From Panorpa germanica (lineage: Eukaryota > Arthropoda > Insecta > Mecoptera > Panorpidae), in NCBI GenBank assembly GCA_963678705.1, contig OY783223.1, positions 7,286,721-7,350,720 on the forward strand: 64,000 bases of DNA, written 5' to 3'. The position numbers were made by a program, and so were the translations under genes. The notes under the pieces are model-generated. The model had not been told where the DNA came from and did not search any database. It was given only the letters and a program-made list of their open reading frames with translations. Positions 34,336 to 59,885 of this stretch are shown in pieces; within the stretch, counting starts at the first letter, position 1, and every line of letters begins with the position of its first letter.

Positions 34336-37300
34336 TTATGTGGCACTCGTGTCGTTCAGTGTGTATGTCCAGTGGGGCCATGTTTTAATTTCTTCAAATA
34401 ACGCATCACCAGGGCTTAAAGATGGTATAAGTTGTCGATGGCCGTATAGTTTATAATCTTTTGAAAGTTTTCCTTTTGCTACGCCGGATTCGATTAATTT
34501 TCTAGCGGCATTTATCTGTCTCTGTGGTGGCTTTACATTATTGAAAGTCCCTATGAAAGCTATTGCTATAGATTTCTTATTAAAACCTGAAAATAATTTA
34601 AAGTCATTATTAATATCTTGGTGAAGCAATATGAAAATCAAATTAATGGGCTTGTGTCCTCATTTTTTAGTGGTCGATTTTTCAATTGTTGATTGAAATT
34701 GATGTTAATAAATGTGTATTGGCGTGTCTATTTTATTAAATATCTAAATGTTGACGGAGATATAGCAATTAAAAGTTTGAATTGTAGTTTTAGCGCTAGA
34801 GATAGTCGGCCATTTGTATGACGTGAAATGCATTTTAACGTCAGTTATTTGTTGAGTAGATCAGTGCTTTGGTAATGTTTTGTAGCTCTTGGTAGTCGAA
34901 ATAATCAAGTTAAGTCAAAGAATAATAAGTTTTTATTTTATTTAACCCTGCTAAGGCAGACATAATATTGTAATTTTATTGTTCCTTGAAATAGCTGTAA
35001 ATAATATTTGATATTTTGATTGATATATAAGGATTGTGATGTCACACGCACTTTGACTGTGTACAACGTGGAATCACTTTAATAATTAAAGAGACAAAAT
35101 GACTTTTTTAATTGTTAATATCTCCTAACATATAAGAAGTTATTAAAAAATAATTGAACATTTGAGGTTCTAGTAACCCACTTTATCAATATATAGTACA
35201 CTTTTATAGAAATTAAGACATAGGACACAAGCCCATTATGATTTATGGTTTGTATCTTAGATAACATTTACCTTTGGTATGAGATCCTTCTGCGTCCCAC
35301 CCTCGTCCTTCATACACCGACCCATCACCACCCACCAGAAAATTATATGCTATATCCCACCAGTGTTTCGATTCTATATGAAATGATTGAATATATCGCA
35401 CATGAAATGTACACGTTGCCTATAAATACAAACAATATCATTATTAAGTTATAAGTGTAGCTATCAGATAATTCGTAGGGGTATTTCAAATATTAGATTA
35501 TAATTTACCTGATCAAAGCAAAAATCTGTTGCTGTGTGAGTTATTATGACTTTAGTTGCAGGAAGTTCTAATGGTGTTGAACCGTCAGGTGGCTGCGCTA
35601 ACCATTCTAGTCGCGTCACTATTCGAAGTTTATCGCCTTGTGACAGAATTGTATCACCTGTAATTAATAAATCAATTATAATTGCGTATGTTATTAGTTA
35701 TCAAGTAACTTGAATATTATAAATAATTTGTTTATAGAAAAAGGGGATTTCTATAAACCCCGCTGATAGTTTATGCGACCTCTAAATCAAAACAGCATCT
35801 TTATCTTAAAGTGGGGTCAAAGTTCTGCAATTATTAAAAGTCTAATACAATTTTTATATTACAACGTACAAACTAATGCCAAAGTATTGGCATGATCAAT
35901 TGTAGACTATTATGAAAATATATAATATATATATATAAATAAAATAGAAGTTGTGTTTTCCAAATATGTTGTTAGAGTTGCAAAAGAGCATGAAACTAAA
36001 TTTAACAAACTGTTACAAACAAATTTAGGTACATTTAGACTTTTTCTTTATATAAAACTATTAGAAAAGTGTAGGTTAGATTAAATGAAAGTGACCACAC
36101 CACTGGAGAACAAAGAAACAAACCTATTGAAGTCTCAATGGGGGTATTGACATTATCATCTTCACTTAAAGTGTTAGTAGTTGCACTTGTCGTACCTTCA
36201 TACGGCTTCACGGTCAGTATTGTAATCAATGTTATAATCATTATTATAGCTGTAACTGCAGTAACAATTAAAGACTTCTTCCGAAGATTCCATGTCTTTT
36301 GAAACCATTTTACACCTTGAATTAAAGTTTTAGAACTATTAGAATATAATAAATATTAATGAAAAGTGTAAATATCATTTCCTGTGTTTTATGGATTAAA
36401 TCTTTGCTATAAAAATGTATAATCAGTTTTTATTCGTGCAGTATTATTTCTTTTATACTTTAGAAGACCTTCACATATGACGTTTAGTTTTATTTTATTT
36501 TTTATGTACAAGGTGAGCAAGAGGCCACACATGAAATTGTAAACTGCGTATGTACCACATCTTAATTTCTATAAAACTGTGCAGTATATTGACAAAGTTT
36601 ACCAGAACATCAAATGTCTAATTATTCATCCAATTAGTCATCTCTTTTATACAACAGATCATAAAAGAGATAGCATACTTAACACAGAAACCCTTAATAG
36701 TGCGACATGTTACGTCATAAATATGGCCGACATCAGTAGCGCTAAAACTACAATTCAAACTTTTAATTGCTATATCTCCGTCAACATTTAGATATTTAAT
36801 AAAATAAAAACGCTAATATACATTTATTAACATCTATTTCAATCAACAATTAAAAAATCTACCTCTGGAAACTGAGTTTACAAGCCCAGTATGTATTTAT
36901 AACATTCTACCGTTTGATTCGTATTGATTTCATTCTATATCACCCTGTGCATGTTTTTGCGTGTGTATTTTATACTCGGACATGATTCTTTATGCATTAT
37001 TCCGTGAACAGCGTATTGCTAATCATTAAAACCGCGAAACACAACAAGTAAATAATATAAATAATACAAAAGATTCGTGAAATAATTTACATAAACAATA
37101 TTAAAAAAATATTACTGGCCATGTGTAATTTGTAATATCACGTTTCAGGTCCAAATGTAGATAAAACCAATAATGTTAACAAAATATTTATACTATGTTC
37201 TCATAGTGTAATAATAAATTATGTTTTCAAAGTAAAAATTAAGGTGTCAATTTTGTAACTGCTTATCTGACGTCTGTTAACCTGACGATTTTTCAAAGGC

Positions 37301-40300
37301 CTATATTTTCTAAGCTAAACTACGTAAGTTTACACAAAACTATCAGAACACATTAAATAAAGACCAAAATGGATCCCATACTTTGAAACTGGCATAACTA
37401 GACTAATTTGTTAATTATAGGGCTTTAAAAAATCGTCAGAAGGTAACAGACGACAGGTAAACAGTTACAAAATAAGCCCCTATGTTAGGTTCCTTCCATT
37501 GTGATATTTACCCTAGAATCGAACCAATATTTACGGTATTTGACCATTTTCAAAATAAGGTTGTAATCACTTCTTTTGTTTATCTTAAAAACTGTAAATC
37601 TGACAGAAATGTTGTAATAGGTTTCTTTGTAAATTTTGTTAATCATTTTCACTTGTAAGTTTTAAAATAAAAAAGTTATGAATAAAAATAAATCTTAAAT
37701 TAAACAGACTGTATTACATTTTTGCATGTACCACTTTTATTGTAAAAGTTATAACAAAAAGTTGTTAACAAAAGTTGTAAATAATATTATTATCTACAAA
37801 AAAGCTCTTTACTAAATTTTTGTTGGAGTGATAGTTTTCAAAATAAACAAAGAACTGTCATTGAGCCCCGATAATTGTAAATTAAATGCAGTGAATTTGT
37901 CTTTTAACTCTGATTTTAAACGTAAAAAGAGATTGTGTCTGTATTACGCCAAGCCTTTGCCTTTACCTTGTGACCAGACAACTGATTTTTAAAGTGATTT
38001 CCTATTCCCATTGACATTATGCTTTCTTGGAGTTTGACCTGTACCGCTTCAAAATATAACACATATTAGTTTGCATGCGGTAGTATTTCGGCAATTATTA
38101 CGAATCTGAATAACATGTCTATAATCTTGCTCGTTGCTGTTCTTGGTATTTGTTGTTCAAGGAAATAAACAAAACAACTAATATTTCTACTTCGTTTGGT
38201 ATTAGTACATTTTTTTATTTAACTATTTGAAATTGACTCAATATCAAGGTGACATTTGATATTGTTGTTCAATTTAAGTTATAAGACTAGCGGAAATGAT
38301 GCTATTGATAAAAACTTCGGCGTTTTTGTTTCATATAATTAATTGTTGCATTCGTTTTGCCCTTTTTTATGATCTGCCGAAACACAGGACGTTATTTTTA
38401 TCAATAAAACACGATAACGATTAGAAGTCGATACAGGACTTTTTGTTACATTCCAAAAAGATCCGCCTAAATAAATGGGCTTGTGTCCTATGTCTTAATT
38501 TCTATAAAAGTGTACTATATATTGATAAAGTGGGTTACTAGAACCTCAAATGTTCAATTATTTTTTAATAACTCCTTATATGTTAAGAGATATTAACAAT
38601 TAAAACAGTCATTTTGTCTCTTTAATTATTAAAGGGATTCAACGTTGTACACATTCCAAATGCATGTGACATCACAACTGCTGCCAACCTTACAGCTCAT
38701 AAATCTCTGCTATATGTATTTAAATATCAAAATATTAAATATTATTTACAGCTATTTCAAGGATCAATCAAATTTCAATATTATGTCTGCCTTAGCCAGG
38801 GTTAAATAAAATAAAAACTTATTATTCTTTGACTTGACTTGATTATTTGACTACCAACAGCTACAGAACATTACCACAGCACTGACCTACTCAACAAATA
38901 ACTGACGTTAAAATGCATTTCACGTCAAACAAACATGGCCGACCATTTCTAGCGCTAAAACTACAATTCAAACATTTAATTGCTATATCTCCGTCAATAT
39001 TTAGATATTTAATAAAATAAACACATTTATTAACATCAATTTCAATCAGCAATTGAATGAGGACACAAGCCCATTATAATTCGCATCAACTTTATCTTCA
39101 TTTGTGTTCCGACAGGTGGAGTGGCTTCGCCATTTGTAGACGATAAAATAGACATTTCACATGTACGACTATGAGAAACTGAACTCTTTCATGACAAAAG
39201 AATCATACGCTTCTTCAATATGATGGCAACTCCAAAATGTTTACTGGTTTTTTTCTAACAATGTGTAATTATTTATTTCGGGACGAGTTCTGTAAATATT
39301 GGTTTGTTTGCTATGCAAATTAAATATTAGTCATAGGTACGGTTTTAAAATTATTTCCTTTTCTCAAACCGATAAGAAGATTTTGGAATTAGAAGTAGTA
39401 GAGTCTGATTACAATATATTACTGATAAGAAAGGCTTACAACAATTAGTCTGATAATTTATAAACTCAACATTGTTATCAAAAAATGGCGACATCATTAG
39501 CAAAGCTAGTATTTTTAGAAATTAGGTTTAAGTGTATTCAAATATGATGTAACCAGGTGAAAAATGTTGCAGGTTACAAAAAATAAAAATTTATAAGTTT
39601 CGGTAAATAATAAAACGTAACGTTAGGTAACATATTTTACATAAAATTATACATATATTAAAATTTTGTTTTTATCAAGAATATTTTGACATAGTTTGAA
39701 AATTCTTTTTACTTTGTAATTAATAAAATATTTTAATTACAAATGGTATCACTTCATTTAAAACACCATGCTTTAGTCTTTTCAGAGTTTGGTCTATGTG
39801 CAGGTGGGTTTTTGCCTTGATATGCTAATCAGCGATTACTCATTATCGTTAATTATTATTTGCACATTCCTTGTTAATTATTTTATGAGCTATTTCTAAC
39901 CATTTTGCATTTTGTGCACCATAAAGACATATCTGTTTATGACAATAGATAAATATAGAATTACTTAAAATTATGACGCAAAATGCATTTAAAATTAAGT
40001 AATAGTTTTTTACAAGTGCTTTATCTCCAGTATAGCTTATTTTTTGTAAGGCTGTCGCACACTGCAAAGGATGGCGAATTCGGGCGTAAATCGCCGGCTA
40101 AAACTCTCACAGTAAGCCGACTCCTGCGTTCTTTGCAAAAATAATTAATTAATTAATTGTTGTTTATTGATCGCCTTTCGGCTTTACAATCTACATTCTT
40201 AATACATTTCATATACTTCAACTTACAATTAAATTTACATTATTCTAGACCTTTTTATTTCCAACAGTACTTTCTGCTTCTTCTTCTCTTGTGCTCCCTC

Positions 40301-43066
40301 TTCCTTCATTTTTCCTAGTCTTCCTTCTGTACAGGTCTATTCCCTAGTCTATTTTTCTGGGCTGAAGTTTAACTGTTTCCTCGCTACTTCTTTCTTTCTC
40401 CTGCTTCCCTTCATTGCCTCTTTTAGTACTTCCTTTCTCTTCCTGTTCCTTGTGCAACCCAGCCACCAGCTTATTTATTCTCCTGTTTTTTCTTTCCTTT
40501 TTACTATTTCTGCCATCCACCTCTTTCCTTCACTGCCTCCCTTTAATAGCTGGCCAATATTCCTTTCGCTCGCTACTTTTTCCTTACACTCAAACTTAAT
40601 GTGCTCCAGTGTTTCGTCCTCCGCTCCGCACAATCTACACTTTCTTTCCTCACTACTTTCCCAGTATCTGTTTCCTTTTTCCTCATTTTCCAATCTAAAC
40701 CTTGCTGTTGTGTCACAATACATACATACCACGTACCGATACGACAGTACGCCAAGTCAAACTTATTCGGACAAACATTTACAGGGTTCGTATAGGTAAA
40801 GCGTAGTAGCGCGTATACACCTGTAAAAATACACTTGCAGTGTGCGACAGGCCTATGGTGTATAACTACAGAGTACAGTTTTGTTACTATATGTTTTAGG
40901 AAGAATCAGAAAGCGATTTATCGCGTGCAAGCCTCACGCACGTATTAGAATAAGATCACAGCGCCCCAGGCCTATGTCATTGTTTTAGCAAAGCTGAAAT
41001 TTCGGGAATAAATAGTGTAATATGTAGTTATAAACGTATGCGTACTTGCTAGCTTGAAAGTAAGGTCCTCTTACAGGTAGTAGATGCAAAAGGTACATAA
41101 AAATGTCCCTCACCTATATGAAAGTATATGTTTTGCAGAATATTGTTAATTATTCCGCCAGACGCTTTAAAGCTCGCAGTTTCGGCATAAAAATGTATTA
41201 AATTTTCTAATTGTTCAGTGTATATAATAAATAACACGTCGGCCATTTTGTGAATCTGCTTTGAAATACGATGACGCGTTTGTTATTTGTTTTGCTTCTA
41301 TACTTTTGATTATTTTTATGTTAAATAAGTTTAAATGTTAACCAAATATTTAGACAAGATGTTGGGCTTGCGAATATGCGGAATTATGTCAACAAATTTA
41401 ATTTGACTAATTTTTATATGAATTTCTAGTTTTTATTAAAATAATGTAAATTTATAATACTAAACAAGCTAGGATAGAGGTGCCTGCAAGGTTATTTCTA
41501 TCTATCGTATTGGAATGTTGGAAAATAGTGCTTAGGTGCAACAAATTACACCCGTTACACATAAAATGTTACCTTACATTACGTAATATTTTACTTAAAC
41601 AAAACCTAGTAATATTTAATGTAAAAGAATCTTTTTTATAACTATTTTAAAAACTTATAATCATTAAAATGTTATTTTTAAGATCATATAATCGTTAAGA
41701 AGTTTTATGACTATGTTCACAAATAGGTAATTTTTGTTTTGTTACATAAACGTAAAATACACGTAATTCTTTTATCTAAAAAGATGGTTTGCTTTTATGA
41801 TTTTAAGGTTAGAAACAGATTCAAAAGTTACACCCAGTAAACATTTTGGACTCACTTTGCCATCATATTGAAGATGCGTATGATTTTTTTGTCATGAAAG
41901 AGTTCAGTTTCTTACAGTTGTTCATATGAAATGTCTATTTTATCGGCTACAAATGGCGAAACCACTCCACCTGTCGTAATACAAATGAAGATAAAGTTGA
42001 TGCGAACTATAATTGAAGTGCAATAGTGATAGAAACGTTACAAAACAAGACACTTCATCAAATTGTTTTACGAGTTTATTAATTCAAACAAGAATTTTTG
42101 AGCTAGCTAAAAAGAAGTCTAAATTTAGGTATTATATTATATGTAAAGGTAATTTAATTATTTTATTAAAGATAAGGAAAAATAAAAGGTATTCTCATTG
42201 TTTTATTATCCTCTTACTTAGTAATCCCCATTATTGAAGGTCGGTGATGAACAGGGCCGAATTATGTTAGAATCGAATTCGAAATGGGGCATTCGAACTT
42301 TGTTGTAGGGCGCCTTGACTTCTGAGGTGGTTTTTAAGGTTTTAAGATAAGGTATTGTACTTCAAAACCGCCGTAAAACGGACCGTGATCGACTGCAAGC
42401 TTTTGTAAAGCATTTTCTCTATTAATTATCTAAAAAAGACTTAGATAAAGAAATAATTGCACATTTGAGGTCCTGATAGCCAACTTTAACAAATATAGTA
42501 CAGTTTTATACACATTAAAGTTTAGGCCCCCGTTTTTGATTTAAACGATTTTTAAAGTCCCTCAATAAATTTAAAACATATATCTTACCTTTAGGACATA
42601 CTCCATTGTCAATATCCCCCCCATTTTGAACCCCCCCGTTGACCACAGTTTTCGTTTTATTATTATTAACTTTGTCTCTATCCTCACTAAATGTTACGTC
42701 ACAAAAATCATCAACAAATCCTTTATTATCGTTCTGCGCACCCCCAGAACCTTCTAGAGCACCCGGAGTAGGTGCCCCATAAAATTGTTTTATAACTACA
42801 GGCCCCTGATAAAAAGTTTTATTTCCAAAATGAACATCTGTAGAATTTTGAACAGCTATATTTCCAAAAGTTGGCCTAAGCTGATCCTGTTTTGGAATTG
42901 GTATTGCTACTGCGCCATCTGTTGTTAATGTCAATTGTTTATCATTGTCACTATTTTCTGAATCACTGTCTTGCCAGTCTGAGTCCAAAACACTTTCAAC
43001 ATCACTGTCCTGCAACTCTATTTTAACACTTACTTTCTCGGGTAGTTTTTCGGTTTGTGTACCCAT
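34336..43066 (-). CDS. PGRP-LC: PGRP-LC-like membrane peptidoglycan receptor
   Basis: Putative IMD-pathway receptor. Exons on the minus strand: 43066-42589, 36315-36124, 35657-35509, 35419-35272, 34586-34336, giving 405 residues in frame. The cytoplasmic part (1-172) has acidic repeats and a cRHIM-like motif at about 70-95. One membrane span lies at about 174-195, preceded by a basic stop-transfer-like run (RKKS), which fits a type II receptor. The PGRP domain is about 232-395, with ITHTA (H264), YNFLVGGDG, YEGRGW and YGHRQ (H372). The position of the third zinc ligand, Cys in amidases, is Ser380 (SLSPG), so it should bind but not cleave peptidoglycan. The start at 43066 was chosen because the upstream frame has no ATG before a stop. 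Introns carry family A and other elements. Confidence 0.85.
34646..35236 (-). mobile_element. family A element, 591 bp, in PGRP-LC intron
   Basis: A full-length inverted copy with both tips (ATGGGCTTGTGTCCTCATTT and AGGACACAAGCCCAT). It fills most of the intron between the last two PGRP-LC exons (34587-35271), starting only 59 bp from one splice acceptor and ending 35 bp from a donor. Confidence 0.85.
36550..36870 (+). mobile_element. decayed family A copy
   Basis: Preserves CTTAATTTCTATAAAACTGT, then the TAGCGCTAAAACTACAATTC block and TTGCTATATCTCCGTCAACA in order. The tips are mutated and the centre is shortened. Confidence 0.55.
36871..38474. other. PGRP-LC first intron, nothing recognised
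   Basis: AT-rich intron DNA without usable frames or clear repeats. Confidence 0.4.
38475..39074 (+). mobile_element. family A reference copy, 600 bp
   Basis: The most complete copy. The left tip is ATGGGCTTGTGTCCTATGTC and the right tip is ATGAGGACACAAGCCCAT; AGGACACAAGCCCAT is the terminal inverted repeat. The interior has no coding capacity. Flanking bases allow only a short, ambiguous target duplication (2-3 bp of A/T). The family occurs in the window as about eleven substantial copies plus several fragments, in both orientations. Confidence 0.88.
39079..39250 (+). repeat. family D repeat copy
   Basis: Runs from ATTCGCATCAACTTTATCTT to CCAAAATGTTTACTGG and directly abuts the family A element. 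It is shared with copies at 41835-42030 (inverted), 58145-58365, 59145-59265 and, decayed, 1215-1335. The nature of the family is unknown; it may be part of a larger element. Confidence 0.6.
40054..40848 (-). mobile_element. family E inverted-repeat element with nested insertion
   Basis: The tips are CTGTCGCACACTGCAA at left and TTGCAGTGTGCGACAG at right. It shares interior blocks (ATACCACGTACCGATACGAC, CGTAGTAGCGCGTATAC and others) with the ~300-bp copy at 50543-50844 in opposite orientation. It is larger because a non-LTR fragment sits inside it (40141-40706). Confidence 0.75.
40141..40706 (-). pseudogene. 5'-truncated non-LTR retrotransposon, 3' end
   Basis: The minus-strand frame encodes RFRLENEEKGNRYWES then CRLCGAEDETLEHIKFEC, the zinc-knuckle (C-x2-C...H-x4-C) tail found after the reverse transcriptase in R1/Jockey-group elements. 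It then continues to a 3' tail of (AATT)n, seen on + as AATTAATTAATTAATT at 40143-40158. The catalytic reverse-transcriptase core is absent, as in a 5'-truncated insertion. The upstream residues of the longest frame belong to the host family E element. Confidence 0.7.
41835..42030 (-). repeat. family D repeat copy (inverted)
   Basis: Reads CCCAGTAAACATTTTGG through GATAAAGTTGATGCGAACTA and on to AGTGCAATAGTGATAGAAAC. It is the reverse complement of the copies at 39079 and 58145. Confidence 0.6.
42252..42330 (+). mobile_element. hAT-like end fragment
   Basis: Begins CAGGGCCGAATTATGTTAG and continues with GGGGCATTCG and GGGCGCC, a layout seen at the ends of many hAT-type elements. No partner end was found. 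Confidence 0.25.
42430..42510 (-). mobile_element. decayed family A end fragment
   Basis: Contains CACATTTGAGGTCCTGATAG and TATAGTACAGTTTTATA, recognisable as the family A left end in inverted orientation. Confidence 0.4.
42589..43066 (-). CDS. PGRP-LC: PGRP-LC-like 5' exon with cRHIM-like motif
   Basis: Encodes residues 1-159 plus one base, with a donor at AAG/GTAAGA. Residues 20-45 are a Ser/Asp-rich acidic stretch. Around 70-95 lies QNSTDVHFGNKTFY followed by QGPVVIKQF, which matches the pattern DV-x2-G-x2-T-x-Y-x-GPV-x-I-x-Q-[FY] also present in the PGRP-LA-like first exon. In Drosophila the corresponding cryptic RHIM motifs of PGRP-LC, PGRP-LE and Imd form amyloid-like signalling assemblies. 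The antisense frame 42945-43184 is a shadow. Confidence 0.8.
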
Positions 43067-43657
43067 TTTTGAAACAAAATTGTACACTTTGGAGTCTATA
43101 TTTTGTGGTAATCCTGTCACATTTTACAGCTCCTGCGCCATACTTTTGCATAAAACACATAAACTGACATATTTACGTATTTAAAATACATGTTTATAAC
43201 TAAATACACATTTTTAATATATTTAATACACTGTTTAACTTTATTTTGAAACTGTTTTGACACGACAGCGGTAAAAGCAACTACAACGAACAAAGAATGC
43301 GTTTACATTTGTTGAATTTTACTTATCAACTTGTTCTATCAGTGTCACAATAAGTTCAAATTGAATGCAAGCAAAATGTATGAACGTAGTGTCATCACAT
43401 GTAACCACAGTTTGAATCACACACATCGACGACGACCAGTAATGGCCGACTGAGTCGTGTTCAACGGTTCAGTTGAACCCAGATTCTTCGAATGCTCAAG
43501 GACATTAATGAAATGTTTGTAATATATCATAGAAACTATACACGAATATAGATCGTACGCATTTCATAGTTTATTGAGAATTATAGAGTTGTTTACTTTA
43601 ATAAAGAAAACGTAGAAGAGAAAGAAAGTGAGAAGAACAGCTTAAAGCTTTCACTTT
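43067..43657. promoter_or_regulatory. PGRP-LC-like upstream region
   Basis: Contains the 5' UTR and presumably the promoter of the PGRP-LC-like gene. I see no convincing TATA box or kB site in it. Confidence 0.3.
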
Positions 43658-45260: not shown

Positions 45261-45543
45261 GTTGCAGCTCCGTTGACAGAGCATCCTTTTGATCAAATGT
45301 TTTTAATCAAAATGTTGGACGCCCAGTATATTGATAATATATGTGATAAAATTGTATTCATTTCAGAAACAGGGAGGCCCCGTCTTAATATTATTCCAAT
45401 GAACGATTCATGATTATATGATAGATACAAAAATACTCAACAGGTTTTTAAAAACAAAAATGTTTGAATTTAACAGAGGCGGATTAACACGTAGTGCTAT
45501 AAGTTTTAGAGATATATTCTTAACAGAACTCTGACAAGTTACA

Positions 45544-47712: not shown

Positions 47713-50700
47713 TCAATAAGCAGTAGTCCATACAGGAGGCCAATTAACTTCAGCACCACATGTAACATTTCCTTTAGAGCTGCAGTTATACCAATGAGGC
47801 CATTTTACAATTTCTTTATAAAGGTTTGGGCCTGGGCTAAGTGTAAAAGTTGTTTGGTTGTGTCCTATCAATTTATAATCAGTGCTAAGTTTTCCAAGAT
47901 TCACACCTAAATCTATTAATCTCTTTGCAGCATCTAATTGAGCAGGTGTTGGATCTATTTTTGAGTAATCTCCACTAAAAACAATGACTATGTTATAATT
48001 TGCGTGATGATTTGTTGCATCCCAACCTCGACCAACGTATACATTAGAATCACCACCAATCTGTAACATAAAACAGAAATTAGTTGAATATTTTAGGTTA
48101 TGTTATTTAGCAAAGATTTTGTAGTTTACCATAAAGTTCTGCCCGACATCTGGTGAGCCAAATCGAATGTAGTGATCACTCTGCATATTCCTCATTTGTA
48201 TTTCACAAGTTTTTTCATCTTCGCATCTGGGGGTTAAGCCCCCCATGTGTGATATAACTACATACGGTGTAGGGTGAACTAGCGCTCTTGTTGCGCGAGG
48301 CTCTACTCCGCCCCAAACATCCCTATAAATCAATTTGTGACCTCCACCAATGCTTTGGTTCGTTTCTCGGCCGTCACTGATAATATCTGGAAACTCATAT
48401 GCATATACACTCTTGCCTTTGCGATCTTGCAGCGGTTCTATAACTTGAAAGTACACCACCACGGCGACCATGCAGAACACAAGAGCTGTCACTGTCACAA
48501 TTAGAATTATTGTGGTTTTTGTTAATGTGCAAAAGTTGTTGCCGCCGTAAGGCGTTAGTTGTTGAGATTCTGTTGGAGATGGATTGTTTGAGAGGGTTGA
48601 AGTCTTCGATCGACGAGCTGAAATATTAAATTAGGTTATGTTTATAAAATAAATTATAGCTTCCAAATTCGGGCTGATGTAAAAGGGTACCTTTCTTATA
48701 TATTAGGAGATATTAACAAATAAAAAAGTCATTTTGTCTCTTTAATTATTAAAGGGATTCAACGTTGTACAACATCCTAAATGCATGTGACATCACAACC
48801 GCTAGTTGTTATCCCTTTTATACGACAGAGCGTAAAAGAGATATATTCTTGACAGAACTCTGACAAGTTTACAGGTTACCAACCTTACAGCTCATAAATC
48901 TGTGCTATATGTATTTATATATCAAAATATCAAATATTATTTACAGCTATTTCAAGGAACAACCAAATTCCAATATTATGTCTGCCTTAGCAGGGTTAAA
49001 TAAAAATATTTCGACTACTAACAGTTACAGAACATTACCACAGCACTGACCTACTCAACAAATAACTGACGTATAAAATGCATTTCACGTCATACAAATA
49101 TGGCCGACCATTTCTAGCGCTAAAACTACAATTCAAATTTTTAATTGCTATATCTCCGTCAACATTTAGATATTTAATAAAATAGACACGCCAATACACA
49201 TTTATTAACATCAATTTCAATCAACAATTGAAAAATTGACCACTAAAAAATGAGGACACAAGCCTATTATTAAAAAATAGTTGGACATTTGAGGTCTTGA
49301 TAACTACCCTTATCAACATAGTACAGTTTAATAGAAATTAAGGCATGTTTCACAAAGCTATCTACATTAGAATGCATCTCTTTGCAACTCTTCTGTCCCA
49401 AGTGTGCGCCATTGGGAAATTTCATAGAATTTGGGAATTGTTTCAAACTTGCAAATGACGAATTGTCATTAGTACGTCATTTGTTGTTTCCGCCCACGTA
49501 CAGATAGCGCTGTGGTCAGCGTCACGGGGTTATTAGAGTGGCGTATGACTTATCCAGTGACCGCTACAATGTAACGAGAATGTACCTATGGCTGTTGTTT
49601 TAAAATTGCTCCCAATTAAGTGTAATTCCAGTGAAGGTAACACGTTGATAACATTCCTTTATACGCAATAGAAAAATGTGCAAAGAACTTTTTGAATTGT
49701 AAATTCCCAGTAAACAATTTGGTGAAGTGTCCTGTTTTGTGACGTTTCTATCACTATTGCACTTCAATGGGCTTGTGTCCTATGTCTTAATTTCTATAAA
49801 AGTATACTATATATTGATAAAGTGGGTTACTAGAACCTCAAATGTTTAATTACTTTTTAATAACTCCTTATATGTTAAGAGATATTAACAATTAAAAATG
49901 TCATTTTGTCTCTTTAATTATTAAAGGGATTCAACGTTGTACACATTCCAAATGCATGTGACATCACAATCCTTGTGTAAGGTTACCAACCTTACAGCTC
50001 ATAAATCTCTGCTATATGTATTTATATATCAAAATATCAAATATTATTTACAGCTATTTCAAGGAATAATAAAATTTCAATATTATGTCTGCCTTAGCAG
50101 GGTTAAATAAAATAAAAACTTATTATTCTTTGATTTGACTTGATTATTTGACTACCAACAGCTACAAAACATTACCACAGCACTGACCTACTCAACAAAT
50201 AACTGACGTTAAAATGCATATCACGTCATACAAATATGGCCGACCATTTCTAGCGCTAAAACTACAATTCAAACTTTTAATTGCTATATCTCCGTCAACA
50301 TTTAGATATTCAATAAAATAGACACGTCAATACACTACACAATTGAAAAATCGACCACTAAAAATGAGGACACAAGCCCATTATGGGTAATTAACGTTCT
50401 GATACGTTCACACTGAGCATTATAGGTTATGTTTTAATGTCATAGTCGTCAACGCACGTTTTGAGATTGAAAATGGTCATCTTCGTGTAAGGATTTGCCA
50501 AAAGTTTGCGAATGAGCATGAACTTTGCAACTATTGTAAAGTCTGTCGCACATTGCAATCGTATTTATGCGAATTTTGACCGGACGTATACGCGCTACTA
50601 CGCTTTACCTATCCGAACCCTGTAAATGTAATGAAGCTCGCACAGTGCAAGCGACAAAGCCGTCTCTTTCATAACAGTGGTGTACCGATAAAGAATAAAG

Positions 50701-53700
50701 TAAAAGTTTGCTCTCATGGTCAATTGTGTTAGTGCACGACAAGTTTGACTTGGCGTACTGTCGTATCGGTACGTGGTATGTATGTATTGTGACACAACTC
50801 ATGCAAAGAACGAGTCGGTTAAATACACTTGCAGTGTGCGACATGCCTAATGCATTGATTAAATAAACAAGACACACCTGCTAGAAACCTGTACTTCTGC
50901 CTGCTTTTAGAATTAACACGTAAAAGTAATTTCATATTAATTAAAAAACTAAAACTTGTTTTATATCTTTGGGATTCCCCTTTTTAAATATTTAAAATCA
51001 ATCACAACTCTATTTATTAAATTCCTGTAAGTGTGAGTAGGATAGCACTATTTTTAATAACCTCTTATCACTATTAATTTAATTTTATAGGTATTTAAGA
51101 AACACAGTTGCTTGATTAACGTATTACGAATCGACAATGAAAAAAATCGTCGTGGATTCATGTTGTTTAATCGCTGGAAGCTGCGTATTCAAGCTGAATA
51201 GTTTAGAGACCATTTTGTGTTAGTAATTTTAAATTGTTTATATGATGACACAGGGTGTTTAATAACAATCGTGTAAAATATGACAGATAAGACTTTAAAT
51301 ACGTTTGAACTAGAAGGTTCTGTTCAACAATGGGTTTGTATCCTCATTTTTAGTGGTCGATTTTTCAATTGTTGATTGAAATTGATGTTAACAAATGTGT
51401 ATAAGCGTGTCTATTTTATTAAATATCTAAATATTGACGGAGATATAGCAATTAATAGTTTGAATTGTAGTTTTAGCGCTAGAGATGTCGGCCATATTTG
51501 TATGACGTGAAATGCATTTTAACGTCAGTTATTTGTTGAGTAGGTCAGTAGGCTATGGTAATGTTCTGTAGCTGTTGGTAGTCGAAATAATCAAGTCAAG
51601 TCAAAGAATAATAAGTTTTTATTTTATTTAACCCTGTTACGGCAGACATAATATTGAAATTTGATTGTTCCTTGAAATAGCTGTAAATAATATTTGATAT
51701 TTTGATATAGAAATACATATAGCAGAGATTTATGAGCTGTAACGTTGGTAACCTGTAAACTTGTCAGAGTTCTATCTTGAATATGCTATCTCTTTTACGC
51801 TCTGTTGTATAAAAGAGATAGTAACTAGCGACTATGAGGTCACATGCATTTCGAATGTATACAACGTTGAATCCCTTTAATAATTAAAGAGACAAAATGA
51901 CTTTTTTAATTGTTAATATCTCTTAACATATAAGGAGTTATTAAAAAATAATTAAACATTTGAGGTTCTAGTAACCCACTTTATCAATATATAGTACACT
52001 TTTATAGAAATTAAGTCGTTTTTTCACCAAGGAATACCCCCTTAACATGAGAACGCGTAGTCACCTTGTGCATATCTCATCACAGCCTTCCGTCCATGAA
52101 GCAAAGACACAAACCAATAGAACATTGCCCCTCTTTGGTTGCAACAAGAACTAACAGTTAGAGAAATAGAGACGCCGCTATATATTAGAGAGAGATACCT
52201 TTACTTAAAAGCAATGTTAAATTGAATAACCTCCAGTTCTGAATCTAAATTAAGCACGTAGTTATCATCATTTACAGTGTGTAGGTGTATTAGACTATCT
52301 GTAATATATGCATGTACAGTGTGGTCTATATCTTTGACAGGCCTGTAATGTTGGTTTTAGCTGTTTTAATATCTTATTACCCACAGCGTGAAGTTATATA
52401 CAGAGTGTTTGAAAAGGTTACAGGGAAAAGTTTGTTAAATCTGTAACACATTGAATTTTACTTAATTTGACATCATTTCTAAATAACTGTACTATATATT
52501 GATAAAGTGGGTTACTAGAACCTCAAATGAGGTTAAAACCTTAAATTAAAACTAGAAACAGTGACTGCGAATGAGGCTTAAGCACGTTATCGTCTTACAA
52601 TATAATTCAAAATTTAAGATTAAATAAAAAGTAAGAAATAATTTTTGTCGAAGTCTATAAAAACCAGTGGCGAACCGAGGCTAATTTTGCACAAGGGCGG
52701 TACTCTATATGGGACCCTTATTTTTCTATTCTTAACAGTAGTTCTTTTGCTTTAGTTCCCATGCGAAATAAAGTGAATTTGGTCAAAATTGAACCGAATT
52801 TTTGGAAGAATATGCTTTTTGTAGGTTCGTTCAATAAGAGCGGTAATTTAATGAATGTTTCAATAAGAAGTGTTTAAAAAAGGCCTATAGAAAAGCTTTG
52901 GGTACTCTATAATCATTTTTAAGTTAGTAGGAAAAATTGGTCAAAATTCGGGTTACTTTGTAAAATAAGAAATTGTCCAAAATTTAAGATATATTCTAGC
53001 AAGTGTCATACCATTTTGGAATCCTTATTAAATGCGCCAACTTTTCATGTTATTTGCCAAACTCGCATAGTACATTTTTTTTTCAGTACCGTCACTCAAA
53101 GTTGGACGAAGAATTAATCCTGATTATTTCGTTGGAAAAAAGTGTCAATATATTCCAAGTTGAAGCAGTTGGCTTTACATTTTAGGCAAGACTTTATAGA
53201 AACATTATTCAGGATCACATAACAATTTTTTTTAAAAAAGTTAAGAATTGTAGCAACGGGAGTGAAAAGACTGTCACAGGGTGCATATTTTCTCGATTTT
53301 TTTGAAATGCTATTAATTTTTAAAATATTCAACTTAGAATTTTTTTAATATTTTTCTGATAACAATAACGTCCACTTCCGGCTTGACGTCGATTTCTGGG
53401 ACATTTTAGTTTTAAAGTTTTTTCTTACTTTTATTATAATAGAGACTTTTAATATTTATAACTATATTCTTTAAATATATTTATTTAATCATTTACGTGT
53501 GCAATTTAGCGTGCAGTATTTAAATTCGCAAGAATCTTGAACAAGACTTGGTGCACCTGGTCTGTTAGCGATTGAGACGACTCAAACTTGCTAAGGAGCT
53601 GTGCAAATACCAGACAAGAGAGTGTAATTAATCAATTAATACTACGTTAAGTTCCTACTCAGAACCTCGCGGTTGTCAAGGTCAACATTACCTCCATAAA

Positions 53701-56700
53701 ATGAGAAAACAAAATCTTGTTTTACACAACATTGATTTTCTGAAATTTTGTGTTTCTTTGCGAATTATTTCTGAGCAAACGTGTAACGATTTTTTAATTT
53801 TAATTTTTTTATTTTAAAGAGTATGGTTTTAAGTATCTTTCACAATTTTTTTTATTGAGAAATACTTATAAATGTGAAAGATGTAAGAGTTTCAGCAAAC
53901 TGCAGCGCGCTTTTTGAAATCGTCTCTTGAGATAAATAGATTAAATTTTTTGCATGAAATTTAGTAAAGCTTAACTGAAGGATTTAGTAAAATATTAATT
54001 TGAAAAAATAACCGTAGTTTAAAGTAAAAATATCTATTCTATTTGATAAAATAAAACCCTTCAGAATGTTTAACAGAAGCTTGTCAAATTTGAACTTGAT
54101 CACCGAGTCATTTTGAGAAAAACGTTTAGTAATGAAAGTAAATAAAAGTGAGGTTATGACAGTGATTTGTTCACTATAACATAAATACTGGACAAACATT
54201 GTTAATTATGGGTAACAAACGTTCTGATACGTTCACACTGAGCATTGTAGGTTATGTTTTAATGTCATAGTTGTCAACGCATACGGTATCACGATGCTCG
54301 TCTTCGTATAAGGATTTACAAATATTTGCCAAATGAGCACGAACCTTGTGTTTGCGTGTAGGCGAACACGTACATGTGAACCTTATAAAAATATAGGGAT
54401 TGAGAAACATGACTTTGACGCCAACTACCGAGAAAAATGTAAAGCAAAGTGGTGGCAAGTGGTATAGAAAACAATAAGGAATTTGTTAAATTAATAATTT
54501 TTTTAATCTAATCGAAATAATTTTAAGTAATGTCTTCTTCAAAAGTATCGTGCTGTATCCGTGGCTGTTTCAATATGCCATATAAAAACAAAAACCAAAA
54601 TACAAGTGTGAAATTTTATCGTTTCCCTGCGAGTACTATGGATAACCTTTAAACGTCAACAATGGATAAATGCAGTGAAAAACTATGTGTAAGTAAATTA
54701 TTTTAATAAAAAAATTTAATTAATCACAATCAAATTTGAAAAGCTAAGTATTATAAAATAGAATATTAAACTATATAATAATTATTTTATGAAATAAATA
54801 AAATAGTATTAAGTAAAAGTAAAATTTAAAAAATTTGTGTTTCAGAAAATATCTAAAGGATTGGGAACCAACTAAAAATACACGCATTTGTAGTGATCAT
54901 TTTGTGAATAATCAAAAGTCAGAACATCCTCGGCATCCTTCATACACACCAACAATTTTTCCTGGTAAAGTAAATACCAAAAAATCCACTCAGTCATTTG
55001 AACGTTTCGAACGATTACGGCAACGGAATGTACGAAGTGAAATGAATATCATTAATAATAATAATAATAATAATAATGAAATTGAAATTCAAGAGGATAA
55101 TTATGTAGATATTGAAACACAGAGCGTTGAAGATCATTATGCTTCTGATGCTACTCCACAAAAAACAACTCGTAGTATAACATGTCAAACTGATGAAATT
55201 GTTGATGAAAGTGTTTTACATGAACATAAGTATTTTTTTTGTAACATAAATTCCCGTGATGGTGTAACTACTGCAGAAGTGCAAGTAAACATTCCAATAT
55301 TATAATATAATTAATTTGCCGCTTTTACGAAAGAATGTTGAAGATGTTGGGTGTGATCCAATTACTCCAGATCCTATTAAATCTGATTATCAAGGTTTCA
55401 ATGGAATTACTTCTATTCATGATGACCAATCGTTAAGCAGTTTAACAGGTGTTAATTTTTCAATATTTGCATTTCTATTGAATATGCTTCCCGACATAAA
55501 ATCTACCAAAATAGATAAAAAAACGAAATTACTTATCACTTTGACAAAATTGAAAACTGGTCTGACATTTACAGCATTAGGAGTCTATTCTGCATCCACA
55601 GAACTTCAGCACAAAAAATATTTATCAGTAACTTACAAAAACTGAATATTTTATTGAAAAATTTTATAGTTTGGCCTTAATTTAATTATTTTTTGCATTA
55701 TTTATTTATATACTATTCTATGCATATACTATTTCTACGCTGTTTACATCACAATCCTTTACATTTATGACACCAGAGCGCTCCACTTTCGGCAGTAGTG
55801 CTGCCTCTACAGTTCTTTCTCAATCCCTATAACATAAATATTAGGCAAAAATTGTTAATTATGAGTAATAAACGTTCTGATACGTTCACACTGAGAATTG
55901 TAGGTTATGTTTTAATGTCATAGACGTCAACGCATGTGTGTATAGTATCACGATGCTCGTCTTCGTATAAGGATTTACAAATATTTGCCAAATGAGCACC
56001 AACCTTGTGTTTGCGTGTAGGCGAACACGTACATGTGAACCTTATAAAAATATAGTTACCGCTTAATTGACAAGGATGTCTTTTAAAATAATAAACCGGC
56101 TGCACCGAGCCCCACGCTATGTGGTCCAAATCGGAAACAGCTGCAAAAAGAGTTTATGAAAAGTGAAATTCATTTTCCTGTTTGGTTAAGTTTTGTAAAT
56201 GTGGCTCAAATGTAAGTAAGTTGTGAAATCATGCGTTGTTAATCAGTAATATACTTCAATTAATAATTATTACTATCGCTATTTAATATAATTTATAATA
56301 TTTAACATAATTACTTGTATATCTTTATACTTTTCAAACAGAAATTTAGATTTAAGCTAACTCAAAACTAACTAAAACTCAGTGAGTGGGAATGGGGCTT
56401 TAGTGTATATATACATTTGTAATAAGACGTCTTATTTTTTTACGTCTCTTCATTGACCACAGATTTGATTTACTATAATTATTTGGGGAATTAAAAATCC
56501 CCAACAAGTCCAGTTTTAAAACGAGTTATAAAAACAACGTGCGACGCGCTCTGTTAAGGCGAAGGTCACCAACAAACAAATGCAAGTACATAGCAAGGCA
56601 GGTGACCTTTCATTTTGTTCCTGTCGTTGTCAGGTTCGTGCGGTGAATTGATTGTTGACTTTGCAGGTTATCTTCTGTGATTTTCTTAAAAATCTTTTAT

Positions 56701-57813
56701 TTATATGTTTTTATTAATAAATAATTCAGGTGTTTTTTGTGAGAAAAAAATACACCGGCATTTAACAAACTGTGAAGGAATAAATGATGGAATGAGTGTA
56801 CTCATTTGCGTGTTCGATTAATCGTGCTGTTTGCGAATATTGAGCGAACCACCTGTTTATACCTATTCACACAAGCTTATTAAAACGTGGTGCAAAACCC
56901 CATGCGATGGGCTTGTGTCCTATGTCTTAATTTCTATTTATATGTTAGAAGATATTAACAATTAAAAAAGTCATTTTGTCTCTTTAATTATTAAAGGGAT
57001 TCAACGTTGTACACATTCCAAGTGCATGTGACATCACAATCCTTGTGTAAGGTTACCAACCTTACAGATCATAAATCTCTGCTATATGTATTTATATATC
57101 AAAATATCAAATATTATTTACAGCTATTTCAAGGAACAATCAAATTTGAATATTATGTCTGCCTTAACAGGGTTAAATAAAATAAAAACGTATTATTCTT
57201 TGACTTGACTTGATTAATTGACTACCAACAGTTACAAAACATTACCACAGCACTGACCTACTCAACAAATAACTGACGTTAAAATGTATTTCACGTCATA
57301 CAAATATGGCCGACCATTTCTAGCGCTAAAACTACAATTCAAACTTTTAATTGCTATATCTCCGTCAATATTTAGATATTTAATAAAATAGACACGCCAA
57401 TACACATTTAGTAACATCAATTTCAATCCACAAATGAAAATTCGATTCTATTTCAAATTAAGCTGAACGTATTTAAATCCATTCATAAAAATTGCGTCAG
57501 TAAGTATAGGATTAAGATAATCGCAATACTTTCTGTGTACACACATAAATAACCCAAGTCGTGCAACGGAAACTCGACGACCTTGAAGAAGGACGACAGA
57601 ATAACAAAGGGTGTATTTAGGTTTATCATCTTAGTGTGTCAATGTTGCATAAAATATATCCAAATGACTCTTTTGCAACCCTGATGCATACTGGTTTGTT
57701 AAATACAATGCAACTGCAAAAAATGGATTTTAAATCTATAAATAAATTCATTCTAGTAGTATATAGTAAGGGTAACAAGTTATTTATAGTTTTACTAATT
57801 CATAAATAGTAAA

Positions 57814-57878
<65 letters not shown>

Positions 57879-59885
57879 TAGTCCAAATCACAGGAGTTCG
57901 GCGGCGACTTATACTTAAAAGAGGTTATAAGAGCGGTATAAATCTGTAATACGATAATAAATTTTATCTTATTCGTTTCTATATACTTTATAGAAAAATA
58001 AGTGAGTCAGTGCTTTCTAGTTATATCGGAAGTTTATACCCCACAACTTGTTTTAAGTATGAGTCGCTGCTTAAGTAGTGATGAAGAGATTTATTTTACA
58101 GTTTTATAGTTAGAAGAAAATAAAGTGAACTTTGCAAGTGTTCGTTGGATTGTTTTGTGACGTGTCTATCACTACTGCACTTCAATTATAGTTCGCATCA
58201 ACTTTATCTTCATTTGTATTACGAAAGGTGGAGTGGTTTCGACATTTGAGCCGATAAAATAGATATTTTATGTGAACGACTGTGAGAAAATGAACTCTTT
58301 CATGACAAAAAAATCATACGCGTCTTCAATATGATGGCGAAGTGATTCCAAAATGTTTGCTGGGCAGCTCCACGAGGTAAATTATTACGAGGATTAAGTA
58401 GTGCAAGTAAATCATTGCAAGACACACTTAACAATTTAGTATCAGGAATAAATCTGCTAAAATCTTTAAACAGGGGCCTCAAAACGGAATTGCGCGTTGT
58501 GCCTTTTAAGTGCGCAAAACCGCCACTGGTAGGAGCCTTATAGTTTCTAAGCACGACACTGGACTAAGTTCAGGTGATTTTCAAAGTCATGAATAAACAA
58601 ATTACGCAAATCGTATAAAACTTATATCTTTTATATCTATAAGAAACAGGTATTTGAAAGACAAACTGAGAACTCTGTTATGTACTTACAATACATACAC
58701 ACACAATATTGACAGGAGAGAGCAAAACTACAGAACATTTTATCCAGTGTAACTTTGTCATCTAGTTTTAATTTCGTTTTATAAAATTGTATTACACAAC
58801 GTGTCTATCATATTTTGGGTATTGTAAAATAACAATTTATGAAATATGGTTCTTGTTTAGAAATAGTACGTATTATCTTTTTTTGTAGCTAGTTTTCCTG
58901 GAGTATTATACCATTTTGGAAAACTGAAGAGTTGCGCCAATTTTTAAAAAAACTTGCCATAGTAGTGTTCATACTTTTTTTTTACACCACGATGAGTTAA
59001 AGTAGACTGAAAGTAAATTTCTTTAAAAAAATTAGGGAAAAATATAGCTTGGATTGATTTTTGTGTAAAAACTACTAGCATTCTGGGATTTTTAATGATT
59101 GTTATGGATAGCAGTGCTATTTAGGTTGCCGATACAAAAAAGTGTAGCCGATAAAATAGACATTTCATATAAACGACTGTGAGAAACTGAACTCTTTCAT
59201 AACAAATATATCATACACATCTTTAATATGATGACAAAGTGACTCCAAAATATTTACTGGGCACTTATCGTTGTATATTAATAGAATTGTTTATTAAACT
59301 TCAATTATTACTTTATAAGAATATTAAGACATTGAAAATCCTTGAAAGTGAAATATTTACAATAGCTGGTGTAGCTTCACCAATGTTATGTGTAGCTAGG
59401 ACTGAGAAACAAAGGTATCAATGAAGCTTTGCAATAAACTATGATTCATCGGCGACTGAACTCCACTGGAGAACATATAAGTTTGACATCTTAAAAACTG
59501 TCGTTCGTAATGTGACTAGTATTGGAAAAACCCGCGAGTAAAGCAAAACAAAAAAACAATTACCATCAGTGACGGCAGCAAGATTGTTCCTCAAAACTTG
59601 GTCCAGCTGATGATTGCTCTTCTCCAATCCAGATTTATCGGAGCTATCTTCACTATTTAAATACTGATATATTGTAACCGGGCCGTGATATTGTGTAAGC
59701 GGACCTATGACTACGTCACTTGAGTTATTCATATTAATTGTTGGTACCCCGTACCGTCCAAACCCGTCCACCATATTTACGACCCCCATATTCGCGTTGG
59801 ATTCATTCACGGGCTGAGGGCCTCGGCCTACCACTGTTGTTTGCATTGATTCCTCGGAAACCTCCATTTTTATGTAAAAACACAT
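47713..59885 (-). CDS. PGRP-LA: PGRP-LA-like membrane PGRP
   Basis: Exons on the minus strand: 59885-59564, 48617-48130, 48060-47713. They total 1158 nt, or 385 residues in frame (379 if the second ATG at 59867 is used). The cytoplasmic exon carries a cRHIM-like motif (about 44-69 counted from MEVSEE). A membrane span lies at about 142-166 (TIILIVTVTALVFCMVAVVV). The divergent PGRP domain starts near LIYRDVWGGVEPRA, continues through ISHMGG, VYVGRGWDATN and LIGHNQ, and ends in SPGPNLYKEIVKWPHW. The amidase Cys is Ser and the catalytic Tyr region (DI-x-YNF) is replaced by DVGQNF, so no enzymatic activity is expected. This matches insect PGRP-LA, a non-catalytic modulator of IMD signalling. The first intron is ~11 kb and full of repeats. 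Confidence 0.85.
48690..49267 (+). mobile_element. family A element in PGRP-LA intron
   Basis: The left end is missing (starts near ATTAGGAGATATTAACAAAT). The right end has an intact but slightly changed tip (AGGACACAAGCCTAT). It begins 73 bp from the splice acceptor of the membrane-anchor exon. A further family A end piece follows at 49268-49345 in opposite orientation. Confidence 0.75.
49695..49766 (-). repeat. family D fragment beside family A
   Basis: CCCAGTAAACAATTTGG followed by TGACGTTTCTATCACTATTG are both family D ends, joined by an internal deletion. The family A element at 49767 starts immediately after. Confidence 0.5.
49767..50381 (+). mobile_element. family A element, 615 bp, both tips
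   Basis: A full copy in the PGRP-LA first intron (ATGGGCTTGTGTCCTATGTC to AGGACACAAGCCCAT). The right half is slightly shortened near AATACACTACACAATTG. Confidence 0.85.
50383..50530 (+). repeat. third copy of the THAP-flanking direct repeat
   Basis: Starts TTCTGATACGTTCACACTGA after a short lead and follows the repeat found at 54175-54395 and 55828-56054 through TTATGTTTTAATGTCATAG, then diverges. It directly follows the family A tip. Confidence 0.6.
50543..50844 (+). mobile_element. family E inverted-repeat element, uninterrupted copy
   Basis: Tips CTGTCGCACATTGCAA and TTGCAGTGTGCGAC. It contains CGCGCTACTACGCTTTACC, GTCGTATCGGTACGTGGTA and GTATTGTGACACAAC, the same blocks as the larger copy at 40054-40848, without the retrotransposon insertion. 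Confidence 0.75.
51330..52016 (-). mobile_element. family A element, one tip degraded
   Basis: An inverted copy starting ATGGGTTTGTATCCTCATTT and running the full interior, including a palindromic segment around CTCTTTTACGCTCTGTTGTATAAAAGAGAT absent from several other copies. It stops at TAGAAATTAAG without the final tip. Confidence 0.8.
52487..52533 (+). mobile_element. short family A end fragment
   Basis: ACTATATATTGATAAAGTGG then GTTACTAGAACCTCAAATG match the family A left end exactly. Nothing of the family lies on either side. Confidence 0.6.
52534..54174. other. PGRP-LA intron, nothing coding
   Basis: AT-rich. The segment near 52980-53110 resembles 58900-59000 (ATACCATTTTGGA, GCGCCAA and TTTTTTTT-CA-like blocks in the same order), suggesting an old shared repeat. 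No gene seen. Confidence 0.4.
54175..54395 (+). repeat. left 221-bp direct repeat flanking THAP element
   Basis: Runs from TATAACATAAATACTGG to CCTTATAAAAATATA. It matches 55828-56054 along its whole length, including AAACGTTCTGATACGTTCAC, ATGCTCGTCTTCGTATAAGG and TGTAGGCGAACACGTACATG. Both copies start and end at a TATA, where the transposon sits. Confidence 0.85.
54395..55828 (+). mobile_element. THAP-transposase DNA element, defective
   Basis: Terminal inverted repeats AGGGATTGAGAAA (from 54395) and TTTCTCAATCCCT (to 55828), with TATA on both sides, consistent with a TA or TATA target duplication. It encloses the broken THAP transposase gene. Element size is 1.43 kb, too short for the full transposase, so it is internally deleted. 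The superfamily is uncertain; the THAP plus winged-helix layout and TA target recall ISL2EU/Harbinger-related groups. Confidence 0.75.
54530..55645 (+). pseudogene. THAP-domain transposase remnant
   Basis: Exon 1 starts at the ATG at 54530 with the THAP zinc-finger half CCIRGC...VKFYRFPAS, but an extra T in CTTTAAACG breaks the frame; after it WINAVKNYV resumes. A GT donor at 54689 and acceptor before 54846 rejoin KYLKDWEPTKNTRICSDHF, which completes the THAP C2CH and its helix. A linker with an (AAT)n asparagine run follows (about 55054-55078). After a stop at 55303-55305, a second frame carries the transposase helix-turn-helix region (LTGVNFSIFAFLL, then KKTKLLITLTKLKTGLTFTA). The DDE catalytic part is absent. 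At least two disabling changes mean it is not functional. Confidence 0.75.
55828..56054 (+). repeat. right 227-bp direct repeat flanking THAP element
   Basis: The partner of 54175-54395, in the same orientation, beginning TATAACATAAATATTAGG and ending CTTATAAAAATATAG. It starts at the base where the transposon ends. Confidence 0.85.
56055..56906. other. PGRP-LA intron, nothing recognised
   Basis: AT-rich with no usable frames. A family A copy begins at its right border. Confidence 0.4.
56907..57445 (+). mobile_element. family A element, right tip missing
   Basis: Starts ATGGGCTTGTGTCCTATGTC, lacks ~90 bp near the left end, and ends within the ATCAATTTCAATC-like segment before the final tip. 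Confidence 0.75.
57817..57874. repeat. (TA)n microsatellite, about 29 units
   Basis: A pure TA dinucleotide run; its length is likely variable between individuals. Confidence 0.95.
58145..58365 (+). repeat. family D repeat, longest copy
   Basis: Runs from GTGACGTGTCTATCACTACT through TTATAGTTCGCATCAACTTT to CCAAAATGTTTGCTGGGCAG. A second partial copy lies at 59145-59265 in the same orientation. Confidence 0.65.
58366..58554 (-). other. unidentified ORF fragment
   Basis: The minus-strand frame beginning MLRNYKAPTSGGFAHLKGTT and ending NPRNNLPRGAA spans about 63 residues, up to the family D border. Composition is balanced and unlike the AT-driven shadow frames nearby. It could be a piece of a mobile-element protein or a retrocopy. 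I do not recognise it. Confidence 0.2.
59145..59265 (+). repeat. family D partial copy
   Basis: From GCCGATAAAATAGACATTTC to CCAAAATATTTACTGGGCA, matching the second half of the copy at 58145-58365. Confidence 0.55.
59564..59885 (-). CDS. PGRP-LA: PGRP-LA-like 5' exon with cRHIM-like motif
   Basis: ATG at 59885, with a second in-frame ATG at 59867 (MEVSEESMQTT). It ends at GATG/GTAATT with one spare base (phase 1). The motif NNSSDVVIGPLTQYHGPV then TIYQYL fits DV-x2-G-x2-T-x-Y-x-GPV-x-I-x-Q-[FY], the pattern in the PGRP-LC-like first exon. The rest is low-complexity, polar cytoplasmic sequence. The frame beyond the donor (59439-59563) is intronic. Confidence 0.8.

What the first reader, a model, noticed from the sequence alone, without database searches (positions are those of the whole stretch)
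34336..59885. Tandem PGRP-LC/PGRP-LA pair, each with its own cRHIM-bearing first exon
Two same-strand membrane PGRP genes have an identical plan: a remote cytoplasmic exon with a DV-x2-G-x2-T-x-Y-x-GPV-x-I-x-Q motif, a membrane-anchor exon, and a PGRP domain with Ser in place of the amidase Cys. The motif is seen directly in both genes. That cRHIM motifs drive IMD signalling, and that LA, LC and LF cluster in Drosophila, is established knowledge. The pairing suggests two non-catalytic sensors that could co-assemble through matching amyloid motifs.
Basis: partly seen in the sequence, partly recalled or inferred. Interest (0 to 1): 0.7.

Follow-up and report, generated by a model that had tools for sequence, protein, structure and literature searches.

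The report
Scorpionfly PGRP-LC and PGRP-LA genes
This stretch of scorpionfly chromosome carries side by side what look like the insect's versions of two fly immune receptors (PGRP-LC and PGRP-LA), an arrangement already known from flies and mosquitoes, and the same genome holds further receptors that seem built from the same signalling piece.

Summary
Two minus-strand genes can be spliced in frame: gene A (34336-43066, 405 aa) and gene B (47713-59867, 379 aa). Each has a cytoplasmic exon with the cRHIM-type motif, a membrane span and a PGRP domain lacking two amidase zinc ligands. The genome matches Panorpa germanica, Mecoptera. A is LC-like and keeps five of six PGRP-LCx binding-site positions checked. 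B carries marks published for PGRP-LA: +2 residues in the beta2-alpha1 loop, -4 in beta4-beta5, a two-Cys tail, and a place beside LC. B has probably lost peptidoglycan binding, so "two sensors" is too strong. RHIM motifs in LA and LC and their clustering are published for Drosophila and tsetse, and the clustering for mosquitoes. This is a new member of a known kind. Beyond the finding, chromosome 13 holds two further cRHIM-like exons beside membrane PGRPs and four PGRP-LE-like places, and an LC-like paralogue without a visible cRHIM exon lies about 1.65 Mb away. In A, B and the chromosome 13 genes a phase-1 junction between cRHIM and membrane exon can be drawn. No RNA data were available, and no PGRP-LA sequence was at hand for a tree, so B stays unplaced there.

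The parts
42589..43066 (-). Gene A (LC-like) exon 1, cytoplasmic, cRHIM-type motif at 42838-42785
   Evidence: GT donor phase 1; motif regex; whole-genome protein search
36124..36315 (-). Gene A exon 2, transmembrane span LIVTAVTAIIMIITLITIL
   Evidence: AG/GT borders, acceptor chosen for frame, phase 1; Kyte-Doolittle 2.84
35509..35657 (-). Gene A exon 3, PGRP domain N-terminal part
   Evidence: AG/GT borders; PDB alignment
35272..35419 (-). Gene A exon 4, PGRP domain middle
   Evidence: AG/GT borders; PDB alignment
34336..34586 (-). Gene A exon 5, PGRP domain C-terminal part and stop; Ser for the amidase Cys
   Evidence: Pfam Amidase_2 2e-09
59564..59867 (-). Gene B (LA-like) exon 1, cytoplasmic, cRHIM-type motif at 59717-59664
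   Evidence: GT donor phase 1; motif regex
48130..48617 (-). Gene B exon 2, transmembrane span IILIVTVTALVFCMVAVVV and first half of PGRP domain
   Evidence: AG/GT borders, phase 1; Kyte-Doolittle 3.15
47713..48060 (-). Gene B exon 3, second half of PGRP domain, two-Cys C-terminal tail and stop
   Evidence: Pfam Amidase_2 5.7e-09

Best explanation
Gene A is the scorpionfly PGRP-LC: a membrane receptor with its N-terminus inside, whose outer domain binds DAP-type peptidoglycan and whose cytoplasmic cRHIM starts Imd signalling by amyloid formation. Gene B is PGRP-LA: a membrane protein with a cRHIM of its own but an outer domain that has probably lost peptidoglycan binding, so that it tunes the Imd pathway (as co-receptor, helper or brake) rather than sensing alone. 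The pair is the LA-LC cluster of flies and mosquitoes, kept in Mecoptera. Shown here: gene structures by splice frame, motifs, lost zinc ligands, binding-site residues, indels, adjacency, and an Imd-like gene with an IQVG core in the same genome. Inferred: transcription, membrane orientation, ligand binding, amyloid formation and the regulatory role.
For: Splice-compatible frames and hydrophobic spans. Among 33 PDB sequences listed, A's PGRP domain is closest to Drosophila LF-z (1.3e-55) and LCx (2.9e-52), then LE (1.1e-46), and with its paralogue C it groups with LCx and LF at 87/91 in a 12-row tree. A keeps T366, H388, W394, Y399 and R413 of LCx; G393 is His. B has T366 to Met, W394 to Ser, Y399 to Gln, two inserted residues in beta2-alpha1 and four missing in beta4-beta5. 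PMC3724876 (its section on the PGRP domain read) reports these two loop changes, and changes at 366, 388, 394 and 399, for fly PGRP-LA, notes two Cys in the LA C-terminal sequence as in B, and places LA at the 5' boundary of the LA-LC-LF cluster; B lies upstream of A on their common strand. An Imd-like gene (L040; IQVGPTYTI; joined exons give Pfam Death 1.2e-09) and a FADD-like death-domain gene (Death 2.3e-10) are present.
Against: No transcript data. B's branch is very long and its place unresolved; holding it with the LC/LF group is neither supported nor rejected (p-AU 0.47), and no LA reference could be included. A's group with LCx/LF is below the starred level (87/91 without B, 70/88 with B) and is not seen in the 17-row tree. 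B keeps H388, which fly LA has lost. A has His for G393. A's exon 2 acceptor is weak and was chosen for frame. PMC3724876 cites mutation studies in which RHIM motifs of LC and LE were not needed to bind Imd but bound Pirk, and finds that fly LA is not required for systemic antimicrobial peptide induction; in tsetse, LA knockdown did not change attacin.
Confidence: 0.85

Rival explanations
1. The two genes are a recent scorpionfly tandem duplication of one receptor and not the old LA and LC lineages.
For: Same strand, same general plan, adjacent.
Against: The PGRP domains are 42% identical over aligned columns, whereas a clear paralogue of A (gene C, about 1.65 Mb away) is 77% identical. B has indels A lacks, and exon structures differ.
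Confidence: 0.05
2. The cRHIM exons work as shared cassettes: alternative splicing also joins B's cRHIM exon to A's body, so this is one complex locus.
For: Both cRHIM exons end in phase 1 and both membrane exons can begin in phase 1. B exon 1 joined to A's body reads 347 aa without a stop. In fly PGRP-LA no described isoform carries both RHIM and PGRP domain.
Against: A's exon 1 lies downstream of B's body, so ordinary splicing could only make B-exon1/A-body. No RNA data either way.
Confidence: 0.12
3. B is a degenerate or dispensable gene whose cRHIM is a relic.
For: Very long branch; changed binding-site residues.
Against: Open frames, AG/GT splice borders, an intact motif, and LA-type loops and tail argue for constraint.
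Confidence: 0.04

Closest known systems
Drosophila PGRP-LC (with PGRP-LF)
   Same: Cytoplasmic cRHIM-type motif, one membrane span, non-catalytic PGRP domain; five of six LCx positions checked are kept in gene A; group at 87/91 in a 12-row tree
   Different: One PGRP domain seen at the gene and no LF gene seen beside it in the window; an LC-like paralogue with a signal-like first exon lies about 1.65 Mb away; His for G393
Drosophila, mosquito and tsetse PGRP-LA
   Same: RHIM-type motif (described for fly and tsetse), membrane span, PGRP domain with +2 and -4 loop changes, two-Cys tail, next to LC
   Different: Here one reading frame can carry motif, membrane span and PGRP domain together, as drawn for tsetse; the three fly isoforms described do not combine RHIM and PGRP domain. 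H388 is kept here and lost in the fly.
PGRP-LE
   Same: RHIM-bearing non-catalytic Imd receptor; LE-like copies occur on chromosome 13 of the same genome
   Different: Full-length fly LE is cytoplasmic; genes A and B have membrane spans

Membership tests
PGRP-LC | PGRP domain closest to LC/LF | tested here: met
   PDB ranking; tree 87/91, below the starred level
PGRP-LC | Membrane span and cytoplasmic cRHIM | tested here: met
   linkage by splice frame only
PGRP-LC | LCx residues in and around the tracheal cytotoxin site kept | tested here: met
   5 of 6 positions checked. Numbering fitted to T366, H388, W394, Y399 named in PMC3724876; G393 and R413 as contacts are recalled. The paper speaks of 10 contact residues; the rest were not checked.
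PGRP-LC | Binds DAP peptidoglycan and activates Imd | not testable with these tools
   Bench assay needed
PGRP-LA | Two-residue insertion in beta2-alpha1 and four-residue deletion in beta4-beta5 against LCx | tested here: met
   against the description in PMC3724876
PGRP-LA | Loss of LCx binding-site residues | tested here: met
   T366, W394, Y399 changed; H388, lost in fly LA, is kept, as are G393 and R413
PGRP-LA | Two Cys in C-terminal tail; place beside LC | tested here: met
PGRP-LA | Groups with known LA sequences in a tree | not testable with these tools
   No LA chain among the PDB matches and no insect collection on hand; B unplaced
cRHIM | Four-residue core like VHIG, IQIG or VQVG | tested here: inconclusive
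   VHFG in A, VVIG in B: similar, not identical, to the cores named in PMC9531809; no fly cRHIM sequence was on hand to align. The Imd-like gene has IQVG.
cRHIM | Forms amyloid and triggers Imd signalling | not testable with these tools
   Bench assay needed

The most novel reading that the evidence does not exclude
Scorpionflies have enlarged the set of cRHIM receptors: LC and LA on chromosome 20, at least two more membrane PGRPs with cRHIM-like exons on chromosome 13, and several LE copies. The membrane ones are assembled from a movable cytoplasmic exon with a phase-1 junction. Four of the five membrane PGRPs examined (B, P3, P4, P5) lack the Trp that stacks on DAP, so one or few true sensors may seed mixed amyloids with many non-binding partners that set the threshold of the Imd response.
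Probability: 0.3. Interest if true: 0.55.

Novelty: new member of a known kind. Interest (0 to 1): 0.3.

Why it matters
It extends the LA-LC pair, each with a cRHIM-type exon, to Mecoptera. In this species a single reading frame can join LA's cRHIM to its PGRP domain. The wider set of cRHIM-like PGRP exons in the same genome would let one ask whether non-binding members co-assemble with LC.

Tried and rejected
The exon 2 acceptor of gene A at 36335 broke the frame and was replaced by 36315.

The Lipoprotein_11 family, tried as a mark of Lepidoptera, gave nothing, in the controls too. The species came instead from matching chromosome lengths to a genome note.

A FADD-like gene was first taken as an Imd candidate. 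The Imd-like gene was then found at a death-domain hit under the family's cut-off (E 3.24); its two exons joined pass the cut-off (1.2e-09). The FADD label is mine: Pfam sees Death in its second piece (2.3e-10) and nothing in its first.

A 17-row tree left A and B open because of long rows. Smaller trees dropped P3, P4, P5 and LB (13 rows) and B as well (12 rows). No Rfam match at gathering scores in the window. The bacterial promoter scan does not apply to an insect and was not used. Structure prediction was not run, because spliced proteins are not letter-for-letter readings of the DNA as its rule asks.

Full report
What is there. Two minus-strand genes fit the finding. Gene A has five exons from 43066 to 34336 and encodes 405 aa; gene B has three exons from 59867 to 47713 and encodes 379 aa. 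Each begins with a cytoplasmic piece holding the motif (A from residue 77, B from residue 51), goes on to one strongly hydrophobic span, and ends in a PGRP domain (Pfam Amidase_2 at 2e-09 and 5.7e-09 on the last exons). There is no RNA evidence. The link between exon 1 and the rest rests on splice signals, frame, strand, and the same order in known relatives. Ten minus-strand ORFs of 70 aa or more lie in the two long first introns; I gave six of them to Pfam (50605, 53114, 54252, 58300, 39849, 40475): five matched nothing and one gave matches under their cut-offs, best zf-RVT at 0.0007. A plus-strand ORF at 54823-55305 in B's first intron has a THAP match under its cut-off (0.029).

Chance. 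The strict motif occurs twice in the six-frame translation, only at these two places, and never in 200 simulated windows. The pattern was written from the two sites, so the second figure is the useful one.

Species. The chromosome lengths of the held genome match table 2 of the Panorpa germanica genome note (PMC11464959, passages seen). The paper has 254 scaffolds and the held copy 249 contigs. The window is on chromosome 20.

Gene A. Its PGRP domain is nearest to Drosophila LF-z and LCx among 33 PDB sequences listed, and 51% identical to LCx and 50% to LF-z over aligned columns. In a 12-row tree it groups, with gene C, beside LCx and LF at 87/91, below the starred level; with B added the support is 70/88, and in the 17-row tree the group is not seen. 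The zinc ligands His and Cys are Thr and Ser. Of six LCx positions checked, T366, H388, W394, Y399 and R413 are kept and G393 is His. The numbering was fitted to the residues named in PMC3724876, which calls T366 a residue shaping the crevice and not a contact; G393 and R413 as DAP contacts are recalled.

Gene B. Against LCx it has two extra residues in the beta2-alpha1 loop and four fewer in the beta4-beta5 loop; T366, W394 and Y399 are Met, Ser and Gln, while H388, G393 and R413 are kept. PMC3724876 (section on the PGRP domain read; other passages) names the same two loop changes for fly PGRP-LA, lists changes at 366, 388, 394 and 399, concludes that LA is very unlikely to bind peptidoglycan, and notes two Cys in the LA C-terminal sequence; B's tail has two. 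B's branch is long and it stays unplaced in the tree, where no LA sequence could be included; a grouping with LC/LF is not rejected (p-AU 0.47).

What is already known. [quoted passage not shown] The tsetse paper PMC13160434 (passages seen) describes LA beside LC with a RHIM-like motif, and finds that LA knockdown does not change attacin. PMC9531809 (passages seen) describes ThT-positive aggregates of mosquito LC, LE and Imd. A search for Mecoptera with peptidoglycan recognition protein listed four papers, none of whose titles concerns scorpionfly PGRPs; only the held open library was searched.

The rest of the genome. With A's motif as query, two further matches lie on chromosome 13 (8.6e-4 and 0.012), each in an open exon upstream of a hydrophobic exon and PGRP exons (P3 and P5). 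They match each other at 4.9e-13. B's motif found only itself. A further membrane PGRP (P4) between them has no cRHIM exon that my patterns found, but it could splice to P3's. The four cRHIM exons (A, B, P3, P5) have phase-1 donors, and phase-1 acceptors are available at the five membrane exons (A, B, P3, P4, P5). For P3, P4 and P5 other AG sites in other phases exist nearby, P3 having six candidates, and A's site was chosen for frame, so the common phase is a reading and not proven. The outer domains of P3 to P5 lack W394, and P3 and P5 also lack H388, while T366, Y399 and R413 are kept in all three. The same chromosome has four LE-like PGRP places near 5219070, 5221526, 5225939 and 5229079. 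At each, among 17 PGRP domains used as queries, the two best queries are the 5229079 gene's own domain (P2) and Drosophila LE. P2 is closest in PDB to Drosophila LE (3e-47, next 3.7e-37) and joins it in three trees (99/94, 95/91, 97/91). Gene C at about C20:8.998 Mb is 77% identical to A's domain and has a signal-like first exon found by eye; no cRHIM exon was found by pattern in about 33 kb upstream, although hydrophobic ORFs are present there, so a membrane form is not excluded. The Imd-like gene has an IQVG core. PGRP counts from this exon-by-exon search are lower bounds; matches on chromosomes 11, 15 and 17 were not studied, and the gene on chromosome 4 keeps the zinc ligands His, His and Cys.

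Verdict. The pair is an ordinary, conserved insect arrangement seen in a new order. B is more likely a non-binding partner than a second sensor. Co-assembly is plausible but untested and would have to be considered for a larger set of receptors.

Noticed in passing
G000 C13:5233424-5233724 and C13:5251986-5252298 (loci L010, L011, L020, L022): Two more cRHIM-like exons (VHFGNK..APITV) upstream of membrane PGRPs; a third membrane PGRP between them shows none of its own.
   Followed up: partly
L024:3531-5217 (C20 about 8.997-8.999 Mb): LC-like PGRP, 77% identical to gene A's domain, with a signal-like first exon, five of six LCx positions kept and two zinc ligands lost; possible soluble decoy or helper.
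   Followed up: partly
G000 C13:5219070-5230244: Four LE-like PGRP places in tandem, two of them with the same visible protein letters; one gene has an N-terminal exon with a GPVHIVIGPEY stretch.
   Followed up: partly
L040:1279-1831 (C1:30280530): Imd-like gene with an IQVG core like mammalian RHIMs, and a death domain split by an intron.
   Followed up: partly
window 14331, 20648, 22155, 34941, 45645, 48975, 50082, 51627, 57152: Nine copies (up to 2 mismatches) of one interspersed repeat core in 64 kb; 34941 lies in an intron of gene A and 48975, 50082, 51627 and 57152 in the first intron of gene B; a like sequence is in gene C's first intron.
   Followed up: no
window 19357-20139 (+): Fibrinogen-C domain gene (1.3e-46) some 14 kb from the PGRP pair; possibly another immune lectin-like gene.
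   Followed up: no
window 54823-55305 (+): Weak THAP-domain ORF (under cut-off) nested on the other strand in gene B's first intron.
   Followed up: no
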